Below are positions 27,754-36,054 of a stretch of 64,000 nucleotides of DNA, piece by piece. The number at the start of each line of letters is the position of its first letter. Within the stretch, counting starts at the first letter, position 1. The notes beneath the pieces were generated by a model, which had not been told where the DNA came from, made no database searches, and saw only the letters and a program-made list of their open reading frames with translations. The stretch is taken from positions 1-64,000 of the forward strand of contig NZ_PQHW01000001.1 of the NCBI RefSeq assembly GCF_003385215.1. The letters run 5' to 3'. This stretch comes from Amycolatopsis thermalba (lineage in GTDB: Bacteria > Actinomycetota > Actinomycetes > Mycobacteriales > Pseudonocardiaceae). Both the position numbers and the translations under genes were made by a program.

Positions 27754-28794
27754 ATGAGCGCAGAGGCCGGGGACGAGCCCGGCAAGCCGAGGCGCGGGCG
27801 GCGCCCGACCATGGGGGATGTGGCCCAGCGGGTCGGGGTGTCGCGGGCGCTGGTGTCGCTGGTGTTCCGCAACGAGCGGGGGCCGAGCGAGGAGACCCGG
27901 CAGCGGGTGTTCGCCGCGGCGCGCGAGCTGGGTTACCGGCCGGACAGCGCCGCGCAGATGCTCGCGAGGTCCCGCAGCAAGGTGCTCGGCGTGATGTTCA
28001 CGGCGCGCAACCCCTTCCACAACGACCTGATCGAGGGCGTCTACCCGGTGGCCGAGGAGCTGGGCTACGACATCCTGCTGTCGGCGACCGCGCCCAGCCG
28101 GGCCGAGCAGGCCGCGGTCGAGGCGCTGCTCAGCCACCGGTGCGAGGGACTGGTGCTGCTCGGCCCGAACCTGGAGCCGGGGTACGTGCGGGAGCTCGCC
28201 ACGCGCATCCCGACCGCGGTGGTGGGCCGCCGGTTCAGCGGGGCCGAGGTGGACGCGGTGCACGCGGCGGAAGCCCAGGGGGTCCGCCAGATCATCGACT
28301 ACCTGGTGGAGCTGGGGCACAAGTCGATCGCGCACATCGACGGCGGCGACGGGCCCGGTTCGGCCGAGCGGCGCCGCGCCTACAAGGCCGCGCTGCGGCG
28401 GCACGGGCTGGCTTCGCACGTTTCGGTGCTGCCCGGCGACCAGACGGAGGAATCCGGCGCGGCGGCGGCGCGCGCCCTGCTGGCCGACCGGGAGTCGATG
28501 CCGACCGCGGTGTTCGCCGGCAACGACCGGTGCGCGGTGGGGTTCCTGGACACCGTGTGGCGGGCCGGGCTGGAGGTGCCGGGCGACATCTCGGTGGTGG
28601 GTTTCGACGACAGCCCGCTGGCGCAGCTGTCGCACATCGACCTGACGACGGTGGCGCAGGCGCCGGAGCGGCAGGCCGAACTGGCGGTCCGCGCGGTGGT
28701 CTCCCGCCTCGACGACCCCGCGCGGGAGCCCGCGCACCTGGTGATCCAGCCGAAGCTGGTGGTCCGCGGCACGACGGGCAGCCCGCGCGCCTGA
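27754..28794 (+). CDS. iolR: LacI-family regulator of inositol genes
   Basis: This 346-residue regulator has an N-terminal LacI helix-turn-helix (TMGDVAQRVGVSRALVSLV) and hinge helix (YRPDSAAQMLARSRSKVLGV). A periplasmic-binding-protein-like sensor domain follows, with GVMFTARNPFHNDLIEG and the C-terminal VVGFDDSPLAQLSH motif. GGAGGAAG precedes the ATG. It is divergent from the ten-gene inositol operon, with palindromic sites between, so control of inositol use is the likely job. The symbol rests on context and need not mean orthology to the DeoR-type IolR of Bacillus. Confidence 0.85.
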   Translation: MSAEAGDEPGKPRRGRRPTMGDVAQRVGVSRALVSLVFRNERGPSEETRQRVFAAARELGYRPDSAAQMLARSRSKVLGVMFTARNPFHNDLIEGVYPVAEELGYDILLSATAPSRAEQAAVEALLSHRCEGLVLLGPNLEPGYVRELATRIPTAVVGRRFSGAEVDAVHAAEAQGVRQIIDYLVELGHKSIAHIDGGDGPGSAERRRAYKAALRRHGLASHVSVLPGDQTEESGAAAARALLADRESMPTAVFAGNDRCAVGFLDTVWRAGLEVPGDISVVGFDDSPLAQLSHIDLTTVAQAPERQAELAVRAVVSRLDDPAREPAHLVIQPKLVVRGTTGSPRA

Positions 28795-28917: not shown

Positions 28918-28969
28918 CACCCGGTGAACCAGCAGGCCGCGGCCCCGCCACGGCGGATAGGCTGGCCGC

Positions 28970-30241
28970 GTGGGTGCGCGGTGGACGGTGGCTCGGGTGC
29001 TGGCGCTGGCCCCGGACGCCGGCTCCGCGCGCGCCGCCCGCGGGCTGGCCCATCCGCGCACCTGGTCGGACCTCGGCAGCACCAGCTCACTCGTCTGGGG
29101 CAAGTGCCAGGGCAGCGCCCGCGCCCCCTACCAGGTGACCGTCGACCTCACCGAGCCCTCCTTCCGCTGCACCTGCCCGAGCCGCAAGTTCCCCTGCAAG
29201 CACGGCCTGGCACTGCTGCTCATGTGGGCCGCCGGCGACGGATCCGTCGCCGAGGACACCGGACCGGCCGACTGGGTCGCCCCGGCCACGCCCCGCAAGG
29301 AACCCACCAAACCCGACCCCGAAGCGCAGACCAGACGGCTCGCCGAGCGGGAGTCGCTCATGTCGGCCGGCCTCGACGACTTCGAGCTGTGGCTGCACGA
29401 CCTCGTCCGCCAGGGCCTGGCCACCGCCCGCCGCCAGCCGCCCGGCTTCTGGGACACCGCCGCCGCCCGCCTGGTCGACGCCCAGCTGCCCGGCCTCGCC
29501 GACCGGGTTCGCACCGCCGGGGCCGACATCCACGCCCGCGCCGACTGGGCCCAGCACCTGCTCGGCGAGCTCGGCCGCTGGTACCTCGCGGTCCGCGCGT
29601 GGCGGCGCCGGGCCGAACTGGACGATGCCGCGCTCGGCGACCTGCGCACGGTCCTGGGCTGGGCCCGCCGCCGCGACGAGATCGGCGACCGCGTCACCGA
29701 CCGGTGGTGGGTCGTCGGCCTGAGCCAGGAGGAGGACGAGCGCCTGCTGTCCCAGCGCACCTGGCTCCACGGCGAGCGCACCGGCGAGACCGTGGTGCTG
29801 CTCGACTTCGCCGCCGCCGGTCAGGCGCTCAAGGTCGCGCACGTGCTGGGGTCCGTCGTGGACGGCGAGATCGCCCGCTACCCCGGCGGCTCGCCCCGCC
29901 GCGCCCTGCTCACCGGCGACGAGCACAAGATCACCCCCGGCTCCGGCCTCCCCCACGCCACCGACGTCCGCACCGCCCTCGCGCAGGCCGCCCGATGGCT
30001 GGCCGGAAACCCGTGGCTGCGCCGCATTCCGCTCGCCCTGGCCGGGATGACCGTGGTCCCCGGCGAACCGCCGCTGCTCGTCGACGCGAGCGGCACCGCG
30101 CTGACCCTGGCCCCGGACACCGACGTGTGGCAGCTGCTCGCCCTGACCGGCGGCCACCCGGCCCCGGTGTTCGGCGAGTGGATCGACGAGCGCCTGCACC
30201 CGCTGAGCGTGCAGGCCGGCGACCGGCTGGTGGCCCTGTGA
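28970..30241 (+). CDS. SWIM zinc-finger protein, first gene of MoxR-VWA operon
   Basis: This 423-residue protein contains a SWIM zinc-binding motif near residues 67-80 (RCTCPSRKFPCKH, the CxCx(n)CxH pattern). SWIM domains bind DNA or proteins. Around it are GSTSSLVWGKCQG before, and a long helical region after. The C-terminal part (about 230-420) carries a beta-rich domain with repeated Trp and Pro. Genes of this kind are found beside MoxR/VWA genes in several actinobacteria, but I know of no assigned role. The GTG start at 28970 gives the conserved N terminus. The stop overlaps the GTG of the next gene (GTGA at 30238-30241). It is the first of five coupled genes. Confidence 0.85.
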   Translation: MGARWTVARVLALAPDAGSARAARGLAHPRTWSDLGSTSSLVWGKCQGSARAPYQVTVDLTEPSFRCTCPSRKFPCKHGLALLLMWAAGDGSVAEDTGPADWVAPATPRKEPTKPDPEAQTRRLAERESLMSAGLDDFELWLHDLVRQGLATARRQPPGFWDTAAARLVDAQLPGLADRVRTAGADIHARADWAQHLLGELGRWYLAVRAWRRRAELDDAALGDLRTVLGWARRRDEIGDRVTDRWWVVGLSQEEDERLLSQRTWLHGERTGETVVLLDFAAAGQALKVAHVLGSVVDGEIARYPGGSPRRALLTGDEHKITPGSGLPHATDVRTALAQAARWLAGNPWLRRIPLALAGMTVVPGEPPLLVDASGTALTLAPDTDVWQLLALTGGHPAPVFGEWIDERLHPLSVQAGDRLVAL

Positions 30242-31647
30242 CCGCCTGGGACGACCTCCTCGGCACGGCGCTGGTCGGCACCGGCCGCCGCCCCTTCGAC
30301 CTCGCCGCCTCCGGCATCCCCGGCGCCGGCAACGTCACGGCCGGCACCCCCGAGGCCGCCGTCCTGGCCGCGGCGGCGCTGGCCGCCGGCTACCGGCGCG
30401 CCGGCTGGACCCCGCCCACCTGGCGCGGCACCCGAGCCGAACCCGCCGCCCCCGGCGACCTTCCCGAGTGCACCCCGGCCGCCGCCCAGCTGCTGGAACT
30501 GCTGCTCACCCGCGCCATCCGCCTGGAAGCCGGCACCGAACCGCTCACCACCGACTGGCTCACCGCCGCCCGCGACGCCGGACGCCGCCCGCCCCACCGG
30601 CTGCTGCCCGAGCTGCTCCGCTTCGGCACGACCACCGCCACCGCCCGCGGCCTCGTCCGGGAGGTCATCGGCCCGCGCGGCGCCTGGCTGGCCGGGCACA
30701 ACCCGGCGTGGAGCTGGGCGGCCACCGTCCCGCCCGGCGAGGTGGCCGAGCGGTTCGCCACCGGCACCCGCGCCGAGCGGGTGGCGCTGCTGACCGATCT
30801 GCGCGCCACCGAACCCGCCCGCGCCCGCGACCTGGTCGGGGAAACCTGGGCCGCCGAACCGGCCGCCACCCGCGCCGCGTTCCTGGACACCCTGCGCACC
30901 GGCCTGTCCGGCGACGACGAACCCCTGCTCGAACGCGCTCTCGACGACCGCGCCGCCACCGTCCGCGCGGCCGCCACCGCCCTGCTCGACCACCTGCCCG
31001 GCTCGGCCCGCGCCCGCCGCATGGCCGCGCGCGCCCAGGCGCTCCACCAGCGGGGCGGCGCCTTCGACCTGCCCGGCGAACCCGACGAGGCGGCCCGCCG
31101 CGACGGCGTCACCGGCCACCGCGAACCCGGCCTGGGCCGCGCCGCGTCCCGGCTGATCCAGATCCTCGCCGCCACCCCACTGTCCACCTGGGACACCCGC
31201 TGGATCGCCGCGGCGGACCACGACGTCCTCCTCGGCTGGACGAAGGCCGCGCTGCGCCAGCGCGACCAGGACTGGCTCACCGCGCTCGCCCGCCACCAGC
31301 CCACCCCGGAGCTGATCGCCGCGCTCACCCCGGAGGTGGCCGCCGAAATCCTGGGCGGCCGGCAGAAACTCGACGCCCGCTTCGGCGCGCTGCTCGCCGC
31401 CGCGCCCGGGCCGTGGCCGGCGGCGTTCTCCACCGAGATCGTCGGGCGGCTGCGCACCGGCAAGGCCGACGCCGTCCTGCGGCTGGCCGCCCGCGCCATG
31501 GCCGAGCACCTGCACCCCGCGGCGCTCGCCGCCGTCGAGAACTGGCTCTTGAGCCTCGGCACCGACCGCAACCCCGCCGCGCGCACCCTGCGCGGCATCG
31601 CCCACGCGCTCACCATCCGAGCGACCATCCTGCAGGAGTTCACATGA
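30238..31647 (+). CDS. DUF5691 family helical-repeat protein
   Basis: This 469-residue protein has the typical DUF5691 opening (WDDLLGTALVGTGRRPFDL). It is built of short Ala/Leu/Arg-rich helices that look like HEAT-type repeats, for example ERVALLTDLRATEPARARD, then PLLERALDDRAATVRAAA with the DxRxxVR-like turn seen in HEAT units. Such proteins usually act as scaffolds. No catalytic motif is seen. It overlaps the SWIM gene (GTGA) and the AAA+ gene (ATGA at 31644-31647), so its product is made in step with both. This suggests a shared complex. Confidence 0.82.
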   Translation: MTAWDDLLGTALVGTGRRPFDLAASGIPGAGNVTAGTPEAAVLAAAALAAGYRRAGWTPPTWRGTRAEPAAPGDLPECTPAAAQLLELLLTRAIRLEAGTEPLTTDWLTAARDAGRRPPHRLLPELLRFGTTTATARGLVREVIGPRGAWLAGHNPAWSWAATVPPGEVAERFATGTRAERVALLTDLRATEPARARDLVGETWAAEPAATRAAFLDTLRTGLSGDDEPLLERALDDRAATVRAAATALLDHLPGSARARRMAARAQALHQRGGAFDLPGEPDEAARRDGVTGHREPGLGRAASRLIQILAATPLSTWDTRWIAAADHDVLLGWTKAALRQRDQDWLTALARHQPTPELIAALTPEVAAEILGGRQKLDARFGALLAAAPGPWPAAFSTEIVGRLRTGKADAVLRLAARAMAEHLHPAALAAVENWLLSLGTDRNPAARTLRGIAHALTIRATILQEFT

Positions 31648-32723
31648 CGGATGTGCTGAGAGCACACGCCGAGCAGCAGCACGCCGGCGAGCTGGCCGCG
31701 CTCGCCGCCGACGACGACCGGCCCCGGCCGCCCAACTGGAAGCTGTCGCCGTGGGCGGTCGCCACCTACGTCCTGGGCGGACAAGCCCCGGACGGCACGC
31801 CGGTCACGCCGAAGTACCTCGGGGCGCGGCGGCTCGTCGAGGTCGCGATCGCCACGCTCGCCACCGACCGTGCGCTGCTCCTGCTGGGCGTGCCGGGCAC
31901 GGCGAAGACGTGGCTGTCCGAGCACCTGGCCGCGGCGATCTCCGGCGACTCGACGCAGCTCGTGCAGGGCACGTCCGGCACCGCGGAGGAGGCGATCCGC
32001 TACGGCTGGAACTACGCGCGCCTGCTCGCCGAGGGCCCCTCGCCCAAGGCGCTGGTCGCCAGCCCGGTGCTGCGCGCGATGGAGACCGGCGGCATCGCGC
32101 GGATCGAAGAGCTGACCCGCATCCCCTCCGACGTGCAGGACGCGCTGATCACGATCCTCAGCGAGAAGACCCTGCCGATCCCGGAGCTGGACAGCGCGGT
32201 GCAGGCGCTGGCCGGGTTCAACGTGATCGCCACGGCCAACGACCGCGACCGCGGCGTGAACGACCTGTCCGCCGCGCTCAAGCGCCGCTTCAACGTCGTG
32301 GTGCTGCCGCTGCCGGAGGACGCCGAGTCCGAAGTGGAGATCGTCCGCCTGCGCGTCGAGCAGCTGGGCCGGTCGCTCCAGCTGCCGGCCGGGGCGGAGA
32401 CCGTGGACGAGATCCGCCGCGTGGTCACGGTGTTCCGCGAGCTCCGCGACGGGGTCACCACCGACGGCCGCACCAGGATCAAGTCGCCGTCGGGCACGCT
32501 GTCCACGGCCGAGGCGATCTCGGTGATGACCAACGGGATCGCGCTGGCCACGCACTTCGGCGACGGCGTGGTGCGCGCCGACGACGTGGCGGCCGGGCTG
32601 CACGGCGCGGTCGTGAAGGACCCGGTGCAGGACCGGATCGTGTGGCAGGAGTACCTGGAGACCGTGGTCCGCGAGCGCAAGCCGTGGTCCGACCTCTACC
32701 GCGCGTGCCGGGAACTGGTGTGA
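31644..32723 (+). CDS. MoxR-type AAA+ ATPase
   Basis: This 359-residue ATPase of the MoxR group has Walker A in GVPGTAKTWLS (about residues 82-92), Walker B in GGIARIEEL (about 150-158; Glu kept), sensor 1 in VIATANDRDRGVN, and an arginine-finger region AALKRRFNVVVLPLP. The C-terminal lid is helical. MoxR ATPases work with VWA proteins to remodel or load metals into partner proteins. Here a VWA protein is encoded two genes downstream. ATGA overlap with DUF5691 and GTGA overlap with DUF5682 (32720-32723) put it in the middle of the five-gene unit. The client protein is unknown. Confidence 0.9.
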   Translation: MTDVLRAHAEQQHAGELAALAADDDRPRPPNWKLSPWAVATYVLGGQAPDGTPVTPKYLGARRLVEVAIATLATDRALLLLGVPGTAKTWLSEHLAAAISGDSTQLVQGTSGTAEEAIRYGWNYARLLAEGPSPKALVASPVLRAMETGGIARIEELTRIPSDVQDALITILSEKTLPIPELDSAVQALAGFNVIATANDRDRGVNDLSAALKRRFNVVVLPLPEDAESEVEIVRLRVEQLGRSLQLPAGAETVDEIRRVVTVFRELRDGVTTDGRTRIKSPSGTLSTAEAISVMTNGIALATHFGDGVVRADDVAAGLHGAVVKDPVQDRIVWQEYLETVVRERKPWSDLYRACRELV

Positions 32724-34906
32724 CCGTCCACGTCCTCGGCATCCGCCACCACGGGCCGGGTTCGGCCCGCGCGGTGGCCGACGCCCTGGGCCGGCTCGAT
32801 CCGGAGGTCGTGCTGATCGAGGGGCCGCCGGAGCTGGACGCGGTCGCCCCGCTCGCCGCCGCGGCAGGCATGCGGCCGCCGGTCGCCGGGCTGGTGTACG
32901 CGGCCGACAAGCCCGCCACCGCCGCGTTCTACCCGATGGCGGTCTTCTCCCCGGAGTGGGTGGCGCTGCGGTGGGCGCTGGAGCACGGCCGGCAGGTGCG
33001 GTTCCTCGACCTGCCCGCGAACGTCGCGCTGGCGCTGGAGGACGCCGACGACCCGGCCGCCGAACCGCCGGTCGACCCGATCGCGACGCTGGCCGCGGCC
33101 GCCGGGTACGACGACCCGGAACGGTGGTGGGAGGACGCGGTCGAGCTGCGCTACCACGGGCTGGAGGTGTTCGACGCGCTGCTCGACGCCATGCGCGCGC
33201 TGCGTGAAGGGCACGTGCCGGACCTGCGCACGCAACGGCGCGAGGCCGCGATGCGGCGGGTGCTGCGCGGCGTCGTCCGCGCCGGTGCCGGGACCATCGC
33301 GGTGGTGTGCGGGGCCTGGCACGCGCCGGTGCTGGTGCCGCCGGAGTTCCCGTCGCAGGCCGCCGACAACCGGCTGCTCAAGGGCCTGCGCACCACGAAG
33401 GTCGCCGCGACCTGGGTGCCGTGGACGTCGTCGCGGCTGGCCCTGGCCAGCGGCTACGGCGCCGGCATCGCCTCCCCCGGCTGGTACCACCACCTGTTCA
33501 CGACCGCCCGGGACGAGGCGGTGCGCCGGTGGCTGGTGCGGGTGGCGCACCTGCTGCGCCGCGAGCAGCACGACGTGTCCCCGGCCGCGGTGATCGAAGC
33601 CGTCCGGCTCGCCGACGCGCTCGCCGTGCTGCGCAACCGGCCCCACCCCGGGCTGCCCGCGGTGCTGGAGGCGTGCCAGTCCGTCCTGTGTGGCGGGTCG
33701 GACGTCCCGATGCGGCTGGTCGCCCGCGAGCTGCTGGTCGGCGACATCCTCGGCCGCGTGCCCGCCGAGACGCCCATGGTGCCGCTGGCGAAGGACCTGG
33801 AAGCGACCCGGAAACGGTTGCGGCTCAAGCAGAGCGCGGCCGAGCAGCCGCTGGAACTGGACCTGCGCACGCCCACGCACCTGGAACGCAGCAAGCTGCT
33901 GCACCGGCTCCTGCTGCTCGGCGTGCGGTGGGGCGAGCCGGCGGAGACCACCCGGACGAAAGGCACGTTCCGCGAATCCTGGGTGCTCCAGTGGCGGCCG
34001 GAGCTGGCGGTGGCGCTGATCGAGGCGAGCGGGCACGGCACCACGATCGAATCCGCGGCGACGGCCGTGGTGGCGCAGCGCACCGCCGGGGCCGACATCG
34101 CGGAGCTCAGCGCGCTGGTCGAGGACACCCTGACCGCGGACCTGCCGGACGCGCTGGCCGGGGCGCTCGCCGCGCTCGACGAGCGGGCGGCGCGCCAGCA
34201 CGACACCACCCGGCTGATGGCGGCGGTCGAGCCGATGGCGCGCGTCCGCCGCTACGGCAACGTGCGCCGCGCCGACACCGAGCTGGTGCAGCGGGTGCTG
34301 ACCGGGGTGGTCACGCGCATCGCGGTCGGGCTGCCCGCCGCGTGCGCGGGTCTCGACGACGAGGCCGGGCGTGAGGTGCGGCAGCTGCTCGACAGCGTGC
34401 AGCGCGGGATCGGGCTGCTCGACCAGCGGGAGCTGCGGGAGGTCTGGTACGGCGCGCTGCGGACGGTCGCCGACCGGCTCGGCGTGCCCGGGGTGATCGC
34501 CGGCCGCGCGGTGCGGCTGCTGCTGGACGCCGGGCTGCTCGATGTGTCCGACGCCGGTGACCGGCTGTCCCGGCAGCTGTCGCTGGCCGCGGACGCCACC
34601 CAGGCCGCGGGGTGGCTGGAGGGGTTCCTGTCCGGGGAGGCGGCGCTGCTGGTGCACGAGCCGGAGCTGCTGGAGATCGTCGACCGGTGGGCCACCGGGG
34701 TGAGCGAGGACGTGTTCGACCACCTGCTGCCGTTGCTGCGCCGGACGTTCGCCGAGTTCACCGCGCCGGAGCGGCGGGAGATCGGGTTGCGGGTGAAACG
34801 CCTCGACCGCGGCGACGGCGCGTCCGGGGTGCGGGCGGCGGACGAAACGCTGGACCACGAGCGGGCCGCCCTGGTGGTGCCGCGGATCCTGGAGCTGCTG
34901 GGATGA
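32720..34906 (+). CDS. DUF5682 family protein with TraB/ChaN-like N-terminal motifs
   Basis: This 728-residue protein is of the DUF5682 family. Near the N terminus it has LGIRHHGPGSARAV (residues ~6-19), then VLIEGPPELDA (Glu ~34) and, about 200 residues in, VVCGAWHAPVL. A HHG/S turn, a Glu in EGP and a later GxxH resemble the metal-binding or catalytic pattern of the TraB/PrgY/ChaN/EreA-like superfamily. That match is my own reading, not an established assignment. The rest (~300-728) is helical with repeats of leucine-rich helices. GTG start overlaps the MoxR stop and its own stop overlaps the VWA start (ATGA at 34903-34906). It may be the effector of the unit. Confidence 0.82.
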   Translation: MTVHVLGIRHHGPGSARAVADALGRLDPEVVLIEGPPELDAVAPLAAAAGMRPPVAGLVYAADKPATAAFYPMAVFSPEWVALRWALEHGRQVRFLDLPANVALALEDADDPAAEPPVDPIATLAAAAGYDDPERWWEDAVELRYHGLEVFDALLDAMRALREGHVPDLRTQRREAAMRRVLRGVVRAGAGTIAVVCGAWHAPVLVPPEFPSQAADNRLLKGLRTTKVAATWVPWTSSRLALASGYGAGIASPGWYHHLFTTARDEAVRRWLVRVAHLLRREQHDVSPAAVIEAVRLADALAVLRNRPHPGLPAVLEACQSVLCGGSDVPMRLVARELLVGDILGRVPAETPMVPLAKDLEATRKRLRLKQSAAEQPLELDLRTPTHLERSKLLHRLLLLGVRWGEPAETTRTKGTFRESWVLQWRPELAVALIEASGHGTTIESAATAVVAQRTAGADIAELSALVEDTLTADLPDALAGALAALDERAARQHDTTRLMAAVEPMARVRRYGNVRRADTELVQRVLTGVVTRIAVGLPAACAGLDDEAGREVRQLLDSVQRGIGLLDQRELREVWYGALRTVADRLGVPGVIAGRAVRLLLDAGLLDVSDAGDRLSRQLSLAADATQAAGWLEGFLSGEAALLVHEPELLEIVDRWATGVSEDVFDHLLPLLRRTFAEFTAPERREIGLRVKRLDRGDGASGVRAADETLDHERAALVVPRILELLG

Positions 34907-36054
34907 CCGATCGGTTGCGGCGGTGGCGGATGATGCTCGGCGGGCAGGACGCCGACGGCACCGGCGTGTCGCTGTCCGGTGTGGACACCCGGCGGGACGC
35001 GACGCTGGAGGCGTTGTACGACAAGGAGAAGGACCGCCGGGGCGGGCTCGGCGGGTCGTCGCCGCGGGTGGCGCGGTGGCTGGGCGACATCCGCGGCTAC
35101 TTCCCCAGCTCGGTGGTGCAGGTGATGCAGCGCGACGCCATGGAACGGCTCGGGCTGCGGCAGTTGCTGCTGGAGCCGGAGATGCTGGAGTCGGTGCAGC
35201 CCGACGTGCACCTGGTGGGCACGCTGCTGTCGCTCAACCGGGCCATCCCGGAGCGGTCGCGGGACACCGCGCGGGCGGTGGTGCGCAAGGTGGTCGAGGA
35301 CCTGGAGAAGCGGCTGGCGCAGCCGACGCGGCAGGCGGTGAGCGGGGCGCTGCACCGCGCCAACCGCACGAGCCGGCCGCGGCACGGCGACATCGACTGG
35401 AACCGCACGATCCTGGCCAACCTGAAGCACTACCAGCCCGAGCAGCGCACCGTGGTGCCGGAGCGGCTGGTCGGGTTCGGGCGGCGGCTGCCGAGCGTGA
35501 GCAGGCAGATCGTACTGTGCCTGGACCAGAGCGGGTCGATGGCATCGTCGGTGGTGTACGCGAGCGTGTTCGGGGCGGTGCTGGCGTCGATCCGGTCGCT
35601 GCGGACGCGGGTCGTCGCGTTCGACACCGCGGTGGCGGATCTGACCGAGTCGGTGGCCGACCCGGTGGAGCTGCTGTTCGGCGTCCAGCTGGGCGGCGGC
35701 ACCGACATCAACGCGGCGCTGGCGTACTGCCAGACCCGGATCGACGCCCCGCGGGACACGGTGCTGGTGCTGATCAGCGACCTCTTCGAGGGCGGCAACG
35801 AAGAGGAGATGCTGCAGCGCGCGCAGGCGCTCCAGGCGGACGGCGTGCAGGTGGTGTGCCTGCTCGCCCTGAGCGACGACGGAGCACCCGCCTACGACCA
35901 CGACACCGCGGCCGTGCTGGCGGCGCTCGGGATCCCCGCGTTCGCGTGCACGCCGGAGAAGTTCCCGGACCTGATGGCGGCGGCGATCCAGCGGCAGGAC
36001 GTGGCCGCCTGGGCGGCGGCGAACGACATCCCCACCGCGGCGGCGGAGGACTGA
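34903..36054 (+). CDS. VWA domain protein with intact MIDAS, MoxR partner
   Basis: This 383-residue protein has an N-terminal helical part and a C-terminal von Willebrand A domain. The metal-ion-dependent adhesion site is complete: DQSGSM (DxSxS, about residues 208-213), the Thr in GGGTDIN (~266) and the Asp in ISDLFEGG (~292). VWA proteins of this CoxE-like type bind MoxR ATPases and hand over substrates. No signal peptide or membrane helix is seen, so it is cytoplasmic. It is the last of the five overlapping genes. A small stem (CTGGCG / CGCCAG at 36142-36157) lies about 90 bases downstream and may end the transcript. Confidence 0.9.
   Translation: MTDRLRRWRMMLGGQDADGTGVSLSGVDTRRDATLEALYDKEKDRRGGLGGSSPRVARWLGDIRGYFPSSVVQVMQRDAMERLGLRQLLLEPEMLESVQPDVHLVGTLLSLNRAIPERSRDTARAVVRKVVEDLEKRLAQPTRQAVSGALHRANRTSRPRHGDIDWNRTILANLKHYQPEQRTVVPERLVGFGRRLPSVSRQIVLCLDQSGSMASSVVYASVFGAVLASIRSLRTRVVAFDTAVADLTESVADPVELLFGVQLGGGTDINAALAYCQTRIDAPRDTVLVLISDLFEGGNEEEMLQRAQALQADGVQVVCLLALSDDGAPAYDHDTAAVLAALGIPAFACTPEKFPDLMAAAIQRQDVAAWAAANDIPTAAAED

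What the first reader, a model, noticed from the sequence alone, without database searches (positions are those of the whole stretch)
28970..36054. Five-gene translationally coupled SWIM / DUF5691 / MoxR ATPase / DUF5682 / VWA system
The sequence shows five genes joined by four successive 4-base stop/start overlaps (30238, 31644, 32720, 34903). They encode a zinc-binding SWIM protein, a helical scaffold, an intact MoxR-type AAA+ ATPase, a large DUF5682 protein with possible enzyme motifs, and a VWA protein with complete MIDAS. MoxR-VWA pairs are known to remodel or metallate client proteins, and VWA-MoxR modules have been proposed to work in biological conflict. Here no obvious client is encoded, so the client or target may be DUF5682, or the SWIM protein may guide the machine to nucleic acid. 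I infer one complex with ATP-driven activation. I know of no described function for this exact set.
Basis: partly seen in the sequence, partly recalled or inferred. Interest (0 to 1): 0.82.

Follow-up and report, generated by a model that had tools for sequence, protein, structure and literature searches.

The report
DNA-damage-linked five-gene MoxR–VWA operon
This is an actinobacterial copy of a five-gene protein machine found in many bacterial phyla and known in Deinococcus as the radiation-induced but functionally mysterious ddrTUVWX operon; many actinobacterial relatives, though not this copy, have a promoter sequence typical of DNA-damage genes in front of it, and one of its proteins may be an unrecognised hydrolase.

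Summary
The five genes and four 4-base overlaps are real. In 66 of the 80 relatives kept, from six phyla by record title and recall, SWIM–DUF5691–MoxR–DUF5682–VWA stand in the same order and strand; 2 more have the first half reversed. The set is not undescribed: it is ddrTUVWX of Deinococcus, radiation-induced under IrrE/DdrO, function unknown; E. coli yehL-M-P-Q is related. Natural fusions join SWIM to DUF5691 and DUF5682 to VWA. New here: (1) a PafBC/RecA-NDp-type DNA-damage promoter motif lies upstream of SWIM in 18 of 46 actinobacterial relatives, against 8 of 391 flanking promoters, in both directions in streptomycetes whose operon is split, and upstream of diverged paralogous systems. 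The window copy lacks it. (2) The N-terminus of DUF5682 resembles the TraB/TIKI hydrolase fold; the fold evidence is moderate. Twenty sampled loci showed no defence-island pattern. Best reading: a genotoxic-stress-induced MoxR/VWA remodelling machine carrying a TIKI-like hydrolase. Composition is well supported, regulation is shown in relatives only, biochemical action is inferred.

The parts
28958..28963 (+). -10-like hexamer TAGGCT, 6 nt before the SWIM GTG start, the placing seen in many relatives; the TTGTCRGTG element expected 8 nt further upstream is NOT present here
   Evidence: sequence; best match to the 23-nt motif in the 250 bp upstream has 5 mismatches
28970..30241 (+). SWIM zinc-finger protein (423 aa), ddrT-like
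29168..29203 (+). SWIM motif CxCx6CxH
   Evidence: motif in 63 of 64 relatives
30238..31647 (+).
31644..32723 (+). MoxR AAA+ ATPase, YehL-like (359 aa), ddrV-like
   Evidence: 40% identical to E. coli YehL, E 5e-71
31887..31910 (+). Walker A GVPGTAKT
   Evidence: pattern in 74 of 74 relatives
32720..34906 (+). DUF5682 protein (728 aa), YehM/ddrW-like
32720..33505 (+). N-terminal domain of DUF5682 (aa 1-262), predicted TraB/TIKI-like; H10, H11, E34, R174, H201 invariant in 54 sequences
   Evidence: models; fold match; profile match; invariance
34903..36054 (+). VWA_CoxE protein with complete MIDAS (383 aa), YehP/ddrX-like
35524..35538 (+). MIDAS DxSGS
   Evidence: pattern in 72 of 74 relatives

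Best explanation
The five genes encode one machine of the ddrTUVWX kind: a MoxR ATPase ring working through a MIDAS-type VWA adaptor that is tied to DUF5682, whose N-terminus is a TraB/TIKI-like hydrolase domain; a SWIM-DUF5691 arm recruits it to nucleic acid or to damaged complexes. In Deinococcus (DdrO-controlled RDRM) it is made after DNA damage, and in many Actinobacteria a PafBC-type promoter motif says the same; I infer that ATP hydrolysis then remodels a target and lets the TIKI-like site hydrolyse or release it. Shown: gene set, conservation, fusions, Deinococcus induction (published), promoter motifs in relatives. Predicted: TIKI-like fold. Inferred: the complex, the target, hydrolysis, that the motifs act as PafBC promoters, and that the window copy, which lacks the motif, serves the same role.
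For: Conserved order in 66 of 80 loci. Fusions SWIM-DUF5691 in 4 loci and DUF5682-VWA in 6 (Pfam-checked in one of them). D. deserti: SWIM gene more than 10-fold and three further genes of the operon more than 5-fold induced by irradiation, IrrE-dependent (passage; ddrW's gene is not in the passage). D. taeanensis locus matches gene for gene, with an RDRM-like site 20 bp before SWIM. PafBC-type motif at SWIM in 18 of 46 actinobacterial loci against 8 of 391 flanking promoters, Fisher p 7e-14. Both directions in split streptomycete-type loci. Perfect copies at paralogous systems among only 21-40 sites per genome, reversed-pattern controls 0-1. TraB fold match E 1.3e-4; profile match to TraB E 0.0011 with catalytic residues in register, against 0.07-0.64 for five other profiles. 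WGR domain in the paralogous first gene.
Against: The window copy has no PafBC-type box (best 5 mismatches) nor has its 92% identical relative L033 (best 4), and 28 of 46 actinobacterial loci have no match within 2 mismatches. No known damage box at E. coli yehL/yehI or, beyond chance, at non-actinobacterial loci. The operon is missing from 3 of the 7 Deinococcus species tabulated, D. radiodurans among them. Fold: TM-scores of the TraB match are only 0.35/0.41; no PDB match under 0.001, with histidine phosphatases (E 0.04) ahead of TIKI-type 2rad/3b55 (E 0.5-1.2); Pfam finds no TraB in any of 54 members; hhalign probability is only 20%. No deletion phenotype turned up in the papers I opened.
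Confidence: 0.58

Rival explanations
1. Metal-insertion or maturation chaperone: MoxR-VWA loads a metal into, and so activates, DUF5682 (the client), as NorQ/NorD do for nitric oxide reductase; SWIM and DUF5691 are assembly factors. DNA damage only raises demand.
For: VWA is CoxE-type; NorQ/NorD insert a non-heme iron (PMC9976466, start of abstract in listing); DUF5682 carries invariant His and Glu residues; some TIKI enzymes are metal-dependent (PMC6254334, passages).
Against: DUF5682 is covalently fused to VWA in one paralogous lineage, which suits a standing partner more than a released client. No metal site was tested.
Confidence: 0.22
2. Anti-phage or other conflict system of the MoxR-VWA ternary type, with damage promoters serving as infection sensors.
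For: MoxR-vWA ternary conflict systems are described (PMC7159879, start of abstract and passages) and some sit by CRISPR loci (PMC10910872, passages); a WYL protein controls a BREX phage restriction system (PMC9122589, listing); single flanking ORFs match PADLOC models such as mad2, mad3, mad8 and GajB; one unverified phage scaffold carries MoxR and DUF5682.
Against: No PADLOC family recurs in more than 2 of 122 flanking ORFs; best PADLOC hit of the five is 0.0065; no relative in the IMG/VR scan; no variable effector or sensor recurs next to it in 63 loci; fixed gene set over phyla.
Confidence: 0.1
3. A general protein-quality chaperone unrelated to DNA, induced by several stresses, with DNA-damage control only a local wiring.
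For: Many loci lack any recognisable damage box, including the window.
Against: Two unrelated kinds of damage control are found on it in different phyla, and on several paralogous systems within one genome.
Confidence: 0.1

Closest known systems
ddrTUVWX of Deinococcus deserti / D. taeanensis
   Same: Same five families in the same order in D. taeanensis; the 78-residue extra gene between ddrV and ddrW reported in print for that species is the one seen in L168.
   Different: Controlled by DdrO/RDRM; the window copy is actinobacterial, with neither an RDRM nor a PafBC-type box found.
E. coli K-12 yehI-yehK-yehL-yehM-yehP-yehQ (YehL MoxR subfamily)
   Same: MoxR 40%, DUF5682 31%, VWA 37% identical; YehM hits PF18934 and YehQ has a SWIM motif.
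   Different: SWIM gene last and not detectably alike outside the motif; DUF4132 protein YehI in place of DUF5691, the two not detectably homologous; no SOS box in the 250 bp upstream of yehL or yehI.
NorQ/NorD, CoxD/CoxE, CbbQ/CbbO, RavA/ViaA MoxR-VWA pairs (function partly recalled)
   Same: MoxR ATPase plus MIDAS-type VWA protein.
   Different: NorQ/NorD, CoxD/CoxE and CbbQ/CbbO serve a metabolic enzyme, usually encoded nearby (recalled); here the constant partners are DUF5682, SWIM and DUF5691 or DUF4132.
TraB/PrgY/GumN and TIKI superfamily
   Same: GxxH - E - R - GAxH motif order and spacing, predicted fold.
   Different: No Pfam-level similarity; no ExH glutamate as in the RRSP-type TIKI enzyme; activity untested.
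Classical MoxR-vWA ternary conflict systems (bpMoxR, VMAP)
   Same: MoxR and VWA partners.
   Different: No VMAP, beta-propeller or variable effector found; bpMoxR hit 4.4e-4, below its cut-off.

Membership tests
ddrTUVWX operon | five genes SWIM, DUF5691, MoxR, DUF5682, VWA in this order | tested here: met
ddrTUVWX operon | RDRM / DdrO control | tested here: not met
   no RDRM pattern upstream of the window SWIM gene; membership is claimed for the gene set, not for the regulon
YehL subfamily MoxR locus | MoxR similar to YehL with VWA, DUF5682 and SWIM genes | tested here: met
YehL subfamily MoxR locus | DUF4132 (YehI) partner, as in E. coli (not known to define the subfamily) | tested here: not met
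   DUF5691 instead; no profile similarity
PafBC/RecA-NDp regulon | tTGTCRgtg-8nt-TAnnnT promoter | tested here: not met
   window best match 5 mismatches; within 2 mismatches in 18 of 46 relatives
TraB/TIKI superfamily (DUF5682 N-terminus) | fold | tested here: inconclusive
   TraB E 1.3e-4, TM 0.35/0.41 in BFVD; nothing under 0.001 in PDB
TraB/TIKI superfamily (DUF5682 N-terminus) | His, Glu, basic residue and second His at matching places | tested here: met
   H10/H11, E34, R174, H201 in 54 of 54, in register with TraB; the first Glu of the RRSP-type 2His/2Glu set is absent
TraB/TIKI superfamily (DUF5682 N-terminus) | hydrolase activity | not testable with these tools
   needs biochemistry
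MoxR-VWA conflict systems | VMAP/bpX partner and variable effector | tested here: not met

The most novel reading that the evidence does not exclude
ddrTUVWX and yehLMPQ-type loci are branches of one ancient genotoxic-stress machine, in which a MoxR/VWA motor drives a TIKI-fold hydrolase (DUF5682) on damage-stalled nucleoprotein complexes, guided by SWIM plus a DUF5691 or WGR-DUF4132 arm; different phyla placed it under their own SOS-independent damage regulators (PafBC, DdrO).
Probability: 0.4. Interest if true: 0.85.

Novelty: new member of a known kind. Interest (0 to 1): 0.66.

Why it matters
The Deinococcus operon has been noted since 2009 as carrying a radiation-response motif, and papers of 2017 and 2021 still list its function as unknown. 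Damage control of two unrelated kinds in two phyla, plus a candidate active site, turns this into a sharp test in ordinary Streptomyces laboratory strains, and would, if true, add an ATP-driven hydrolase machine to bacterial DNA-damage responses and give the YehL branch of MoxR ATPases a role.

Tried and rejected
Defence island: PADLOC and Pfam on 122 flanking ORFs (20 loci that I picked from the window and the 80; up to 7 ORFs nearest the operon each, 139 in all, of which 17 over 700 aa were dropped) gave no recurrent defence gene; scattered single matches included mad2, mad3, mad8, GajB-type helicase, HmaC, WYL, AriA and Cas3c. A further conserved partner gene: among the 40 largest ORF clusters of 63 loci, beyond the core, I saw antisense frames (judged by strand and place), synteny of a few Streptosporangiales-like loci, and generic families such as ALDH, SDR and MFS in the seven clusters whose sequences I printed (an earlier larger run timed out). 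DUF5691 as a form of DUF4132/YehI, or SWIM as a form of YehQ: no profile similarity. Erythromycin-esterase relationship of DUF5682: not significant, but TraB against that family was not significant either, so this method would miss it. LexA-type boxes: nothing clearly beyond chance (loose actinobacterial form 2 of 69, 0.9 expected; others 0). Full-length DUF5682 fold search was swamped by helical repeats. Histidine-phosphatase fold: PDB hits at E 0.04-1.7; weaker than the TraB match in the other library, not excluded. Third paralogue group (DUF5682-VWA fusion): the motif within 1 mismatch in 4 of 7 upstream regions, but in L173 about 900 nt before the long ORF, so not counted as evidence.
Full report
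WHAT IS THERE. The window lies in a 7.2-Mb genome in 222 contigs, 70-78% GC over 2-kb steps. Its DUF5682 protein is 92% identical to one from Amycolatopsis tucumanensis (L033). Pfam names them SWIM, DUF5691, AAA_5, DUF5682 and VWA_CoxE. A LacI-like gene lies upstream (my reading of its sequence; no family hit was viewed) and argininosuccinate synthase downstream. A TAGGCT hexamer ends 6 nt before the GTG of the SWIM gene, which would suit a leaderless transcript (inference).

IT IS A FIXED UNIT. tblastn on these 80 loci found the five families in the same order and strand in 66; in 2 (Streptantibioticus and Streptomyces) the SWIM-DUF5691 half is turned round. Of the other 12, 7 are cut by contig ends; L081 is cut at one end and shows no SWIM in 1.46 kb upstream; and L039, L057, L058 and L077 are real departures. 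3 of those 4 genomes hold DUF5691 outside the fetched locus; for L057 none was found. By record title, with genera placed from recall, the complete loci are from Actinomycetota, Cyanobacteria, Chloroflexi, Planctomycetota, Bacteroidota and Gammaproteobacteria; plasmid records add Deinococcus and Rhizobium, and Methylosinus without an annotated VWA gene. In 296 actinobacterial genomes DUF5682 is in 25, and DUF5691 over its cut-off in 22, all among the 25 (same handles; 5 further DUF5691 matches below the cut-off lie outside the 25). Comparison of ORFs from 63 loci showed no other generally recurrent partner among the clusters I looked at; a YehI-like gene lies near in 2 of 80.

PHYSICAL LINKS. 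SWIM and DUF5691 are one open frame in 4 of 65 extracted SWIM ORFs, from two phyla (L053, L064, L082, L109). DUF5682 and VWA lie in one open frame in 6 loci of a paralogous lineage (L026, L028-L032); in one of these places, refetched as L154, Pfam finds DUF5682 and VWA_CoxE in one 1266-aa frame. Such fusions support one complex; they do not prove it.

KNOWN NAMES. E. coli K-12 yehL-yehM-yehP-yehQ is the same kind of locus: blastp 40%, 31% and 37% identity to MoxR, DUF5682 and VWA; Pfam gives YehM as DUF5682; YehQ shares only the SWIM motif. YehL is one of seven named MoxR subfamilies (PMC3893208, passages). The Deinococcus deserti operon Deide_18730-18690 was named ddrTUVWX: five genes of unknown function with an RDRM upstream. 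In the passage of its Table 2, the SWIM gene is over 10-fold and the VWA gene and two others over 5-fold radiation-induced, IrrE-dependent; Deide_18700 is not in the passage. In Table 4 as printed to me, the operon and its motif are in 4 of 7 species and missing from D. radiodurans, D. geothermalis and D. proteolyticus (PMC5552922, passages). A 2009 paper already proposed that its MoxR and VWA proteins form a chaperone system (PMC2669436, passages). The D. taeanensis locus L168 is annotated SWIM, DUF5691, AAA, a short gene, DUF5682, VWA, and the paper on that species reports ddrTUVWX with a 78-residue extra gene between ddrV and ddrW (PMC9510100, passage), so the letters map T=SWIM, U=DUF5691, V=MoxR, W=DUF5682, X=VWA. 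L168 has TTACGCCAGAAACATAA 20 bp before the SWIM start, 3 mismatches from my 17-base form of the RDRM and the only such place in 20 kb, while shuffles gave none; with the published 15-base consensus it has 2 mismatches, and 9 of 100 shuffles had a match as good. DUF5682 and DUF5691 are in no held paper, and ddrTUVWX in three held papers, all on Deinococcus.

A DAMAGE PROMOTER MOTIF IN ACTINOBACTERIA (not found in print in searches). The PafBC/RecA-NDp motif is tTGTCRgtg-8nt-TAnnnT (PMC5656591, passages). Within 250 bp of the SWIM start, 18 of 46 actinobacterial relatives (of 51 listed; the rest had no usable SWIM start) have it with at most 2 mismatches, 5 of them perfect and 11 of the 18 lying 29-31 bp before the start. 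The control, upstream regions of predicted flanking genes, gave 8 of 391 (Fisher p 7e-14); with seven genera merged by hand, 12 of 31 labels have it. With looser spacing: 19 of 47, window included, against 48 of 3120 random windows, and 1 of 18 in non-actinobacteria. Four of the five SWIM-ward misses had under 200 bp of upstream sequence; the other, L014, is not a split locus. A third member of that last group (L158) has a perfect site as well, but the next ORF of 120 aa or more that I listed begins 455 nt on, and a fourth (L157/L171) has none. The first gene of the YehLMPQ-type locus L159 is WGR-DUF4132; WGR domains occur in DNA-break-sensing PARPs (recalled).

AGAINST. The window copy does not have this motif (best 5 mismatches), although its genome has 18 perfect sites elsewhere against 0 for the reversed pattern. 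Its near relative L033 lacks it too, while three other Amycolatopsis loci, 52% identical in DUF5682, have it within 1-2 mismatches. So damage control is shown by published expression for Deinococcus, by motif for relatives, and for the window only by kinship. Other phyla showed no LexA-type box beyond chance. A 2022 paper reports from an initial search that the mycobacterial PafBC motif is not conserved in S. venezuelae (PMC9380542, passage); my scans of other genomes point the other way, but I did not scan that species and no binding was tested. UV induction from a RecA-NDp promoter has been reported in S. coelicolor for another gene (PMC5087735, passages).

DUF5682 AS A POSSIBLE HYDROLASE. 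AlphaFold models of full-length DUF5682 (mean pLDDT 90.9) and of residues 1-262 (88.5) rest on 54 sequences. The N-domain's only match under 0.001 in the viral library is a TraB-family protein (E 1.3e-4, probability 1.00, but TM-scores only 0.35 and 0.41). The PDB search gave nothing under 0.001: histidine phosphatases lead at 0.04, and TIKI-type 2rad/3b55 come at 0.5-1.2. Profile comparison of 38 N-domains (34 used; some are the same place fetched twice, and the paralogue rows were picked by their HH and GxxH motifs) with 25 TraB sequences gives E 0.0011, probability 20%, against 0.07-0.64 for five other profiles. The forced full alignment sets GxRHH on GTxH, E34 on the TraB Glu, R174 on the TraB Arg and CGAWH on GAxH, in order; without the added paralogues E is 0.0034. 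G7, R9, H10, H11, E34, R174, E175, G198 and H201 are invariant in 54 of 54 and in the ten-sequence alignment with YehM and two fusion-type paralogues; the most diverged group (L155-L158) reads VCHH in place of GxRHH. In a wider set, simple patterns for the Glu and second-His motifs miss 6 and 3 of 78. Spacing agrees roughly with the TIKI active site described for other enzymes, except that the ExH glutamate is missing (PMC6254334, passages). The bare motif also occurs in 220 of 10,800 shuffled sequences and in the neighbouring argininosuccinate synthase, so alone it proves little. I rate the fold at about 0.75 and an enzymatic role at about 0.5.

HOW IT PROBABLY WORKS. After DNA damage the five proteins are made from coupled genes. 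MoxR rings act through the MIDAS of VWA, which is bound to DUF5682; SWIM-DUF5691 (or a DUF4132 protein and SWIM in the E. coli-like branch) brings the machine to its target; ATP hydrolysis remodels it, and the TIKI-like site cuts a bond or is itself switched on. Target and chemistry are inference. The main rival, metal loading of DUF5682 by MoxR-VWA, fits the same data.

Noticed in passing
L155-L158; L157:4309-7260: A diverged paralogous system in unnamed actinobacterial genomes: SWIM-like gene, VWA, MoxR and a DUF5682 relative with VCHHSP and GAFH motifs; a perfect PafBC-type motif lies upstream in L155, L156 and L158, none in L157.
   Followed up: partly
L154, L161, L163: Another paralogous system: a protein of about 1400 aa without a Pfam family over cut-off (two of three scanned), MoxR, a DUF5682-VWA fusion and, in L161, a SWIM-like gene.
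   Followed up: partly
L187 (MT835988.1): An unverified 'Bacteriophage sp.' faecal scaffold carries MoxR and DUF5682 genes; the only hit in the phage collection for either protein, possibly bacterial DNA.
   Followed up: no
window 28970-36054 versus L043, L054, L056: Amycolatopsis holds two quite different versions of the operon (92% versus 52% identity in DUF5682), which suggests horizontal transfer or old duplication.
   Followed up: no
window DUF5682, aa 1-18: The Pfam match to PF18934 starts at residue 19, after the invariant GxRHH motif, so the presumed active-site histidines lie outside the model.
   Followed up: yes
L168:8768-9004: D. taeanensis has a 78-aa gene of unknown kind between the MoxR and DUF5682 genes.
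   Followed up: no
L169:2982-4007 and window 27754-28791: A LacI-family regulator gene lies directly upstream of the SWIM gene in Rhizobium sp. K102, as a LacI-like gene does in the window.
   Followed up: no
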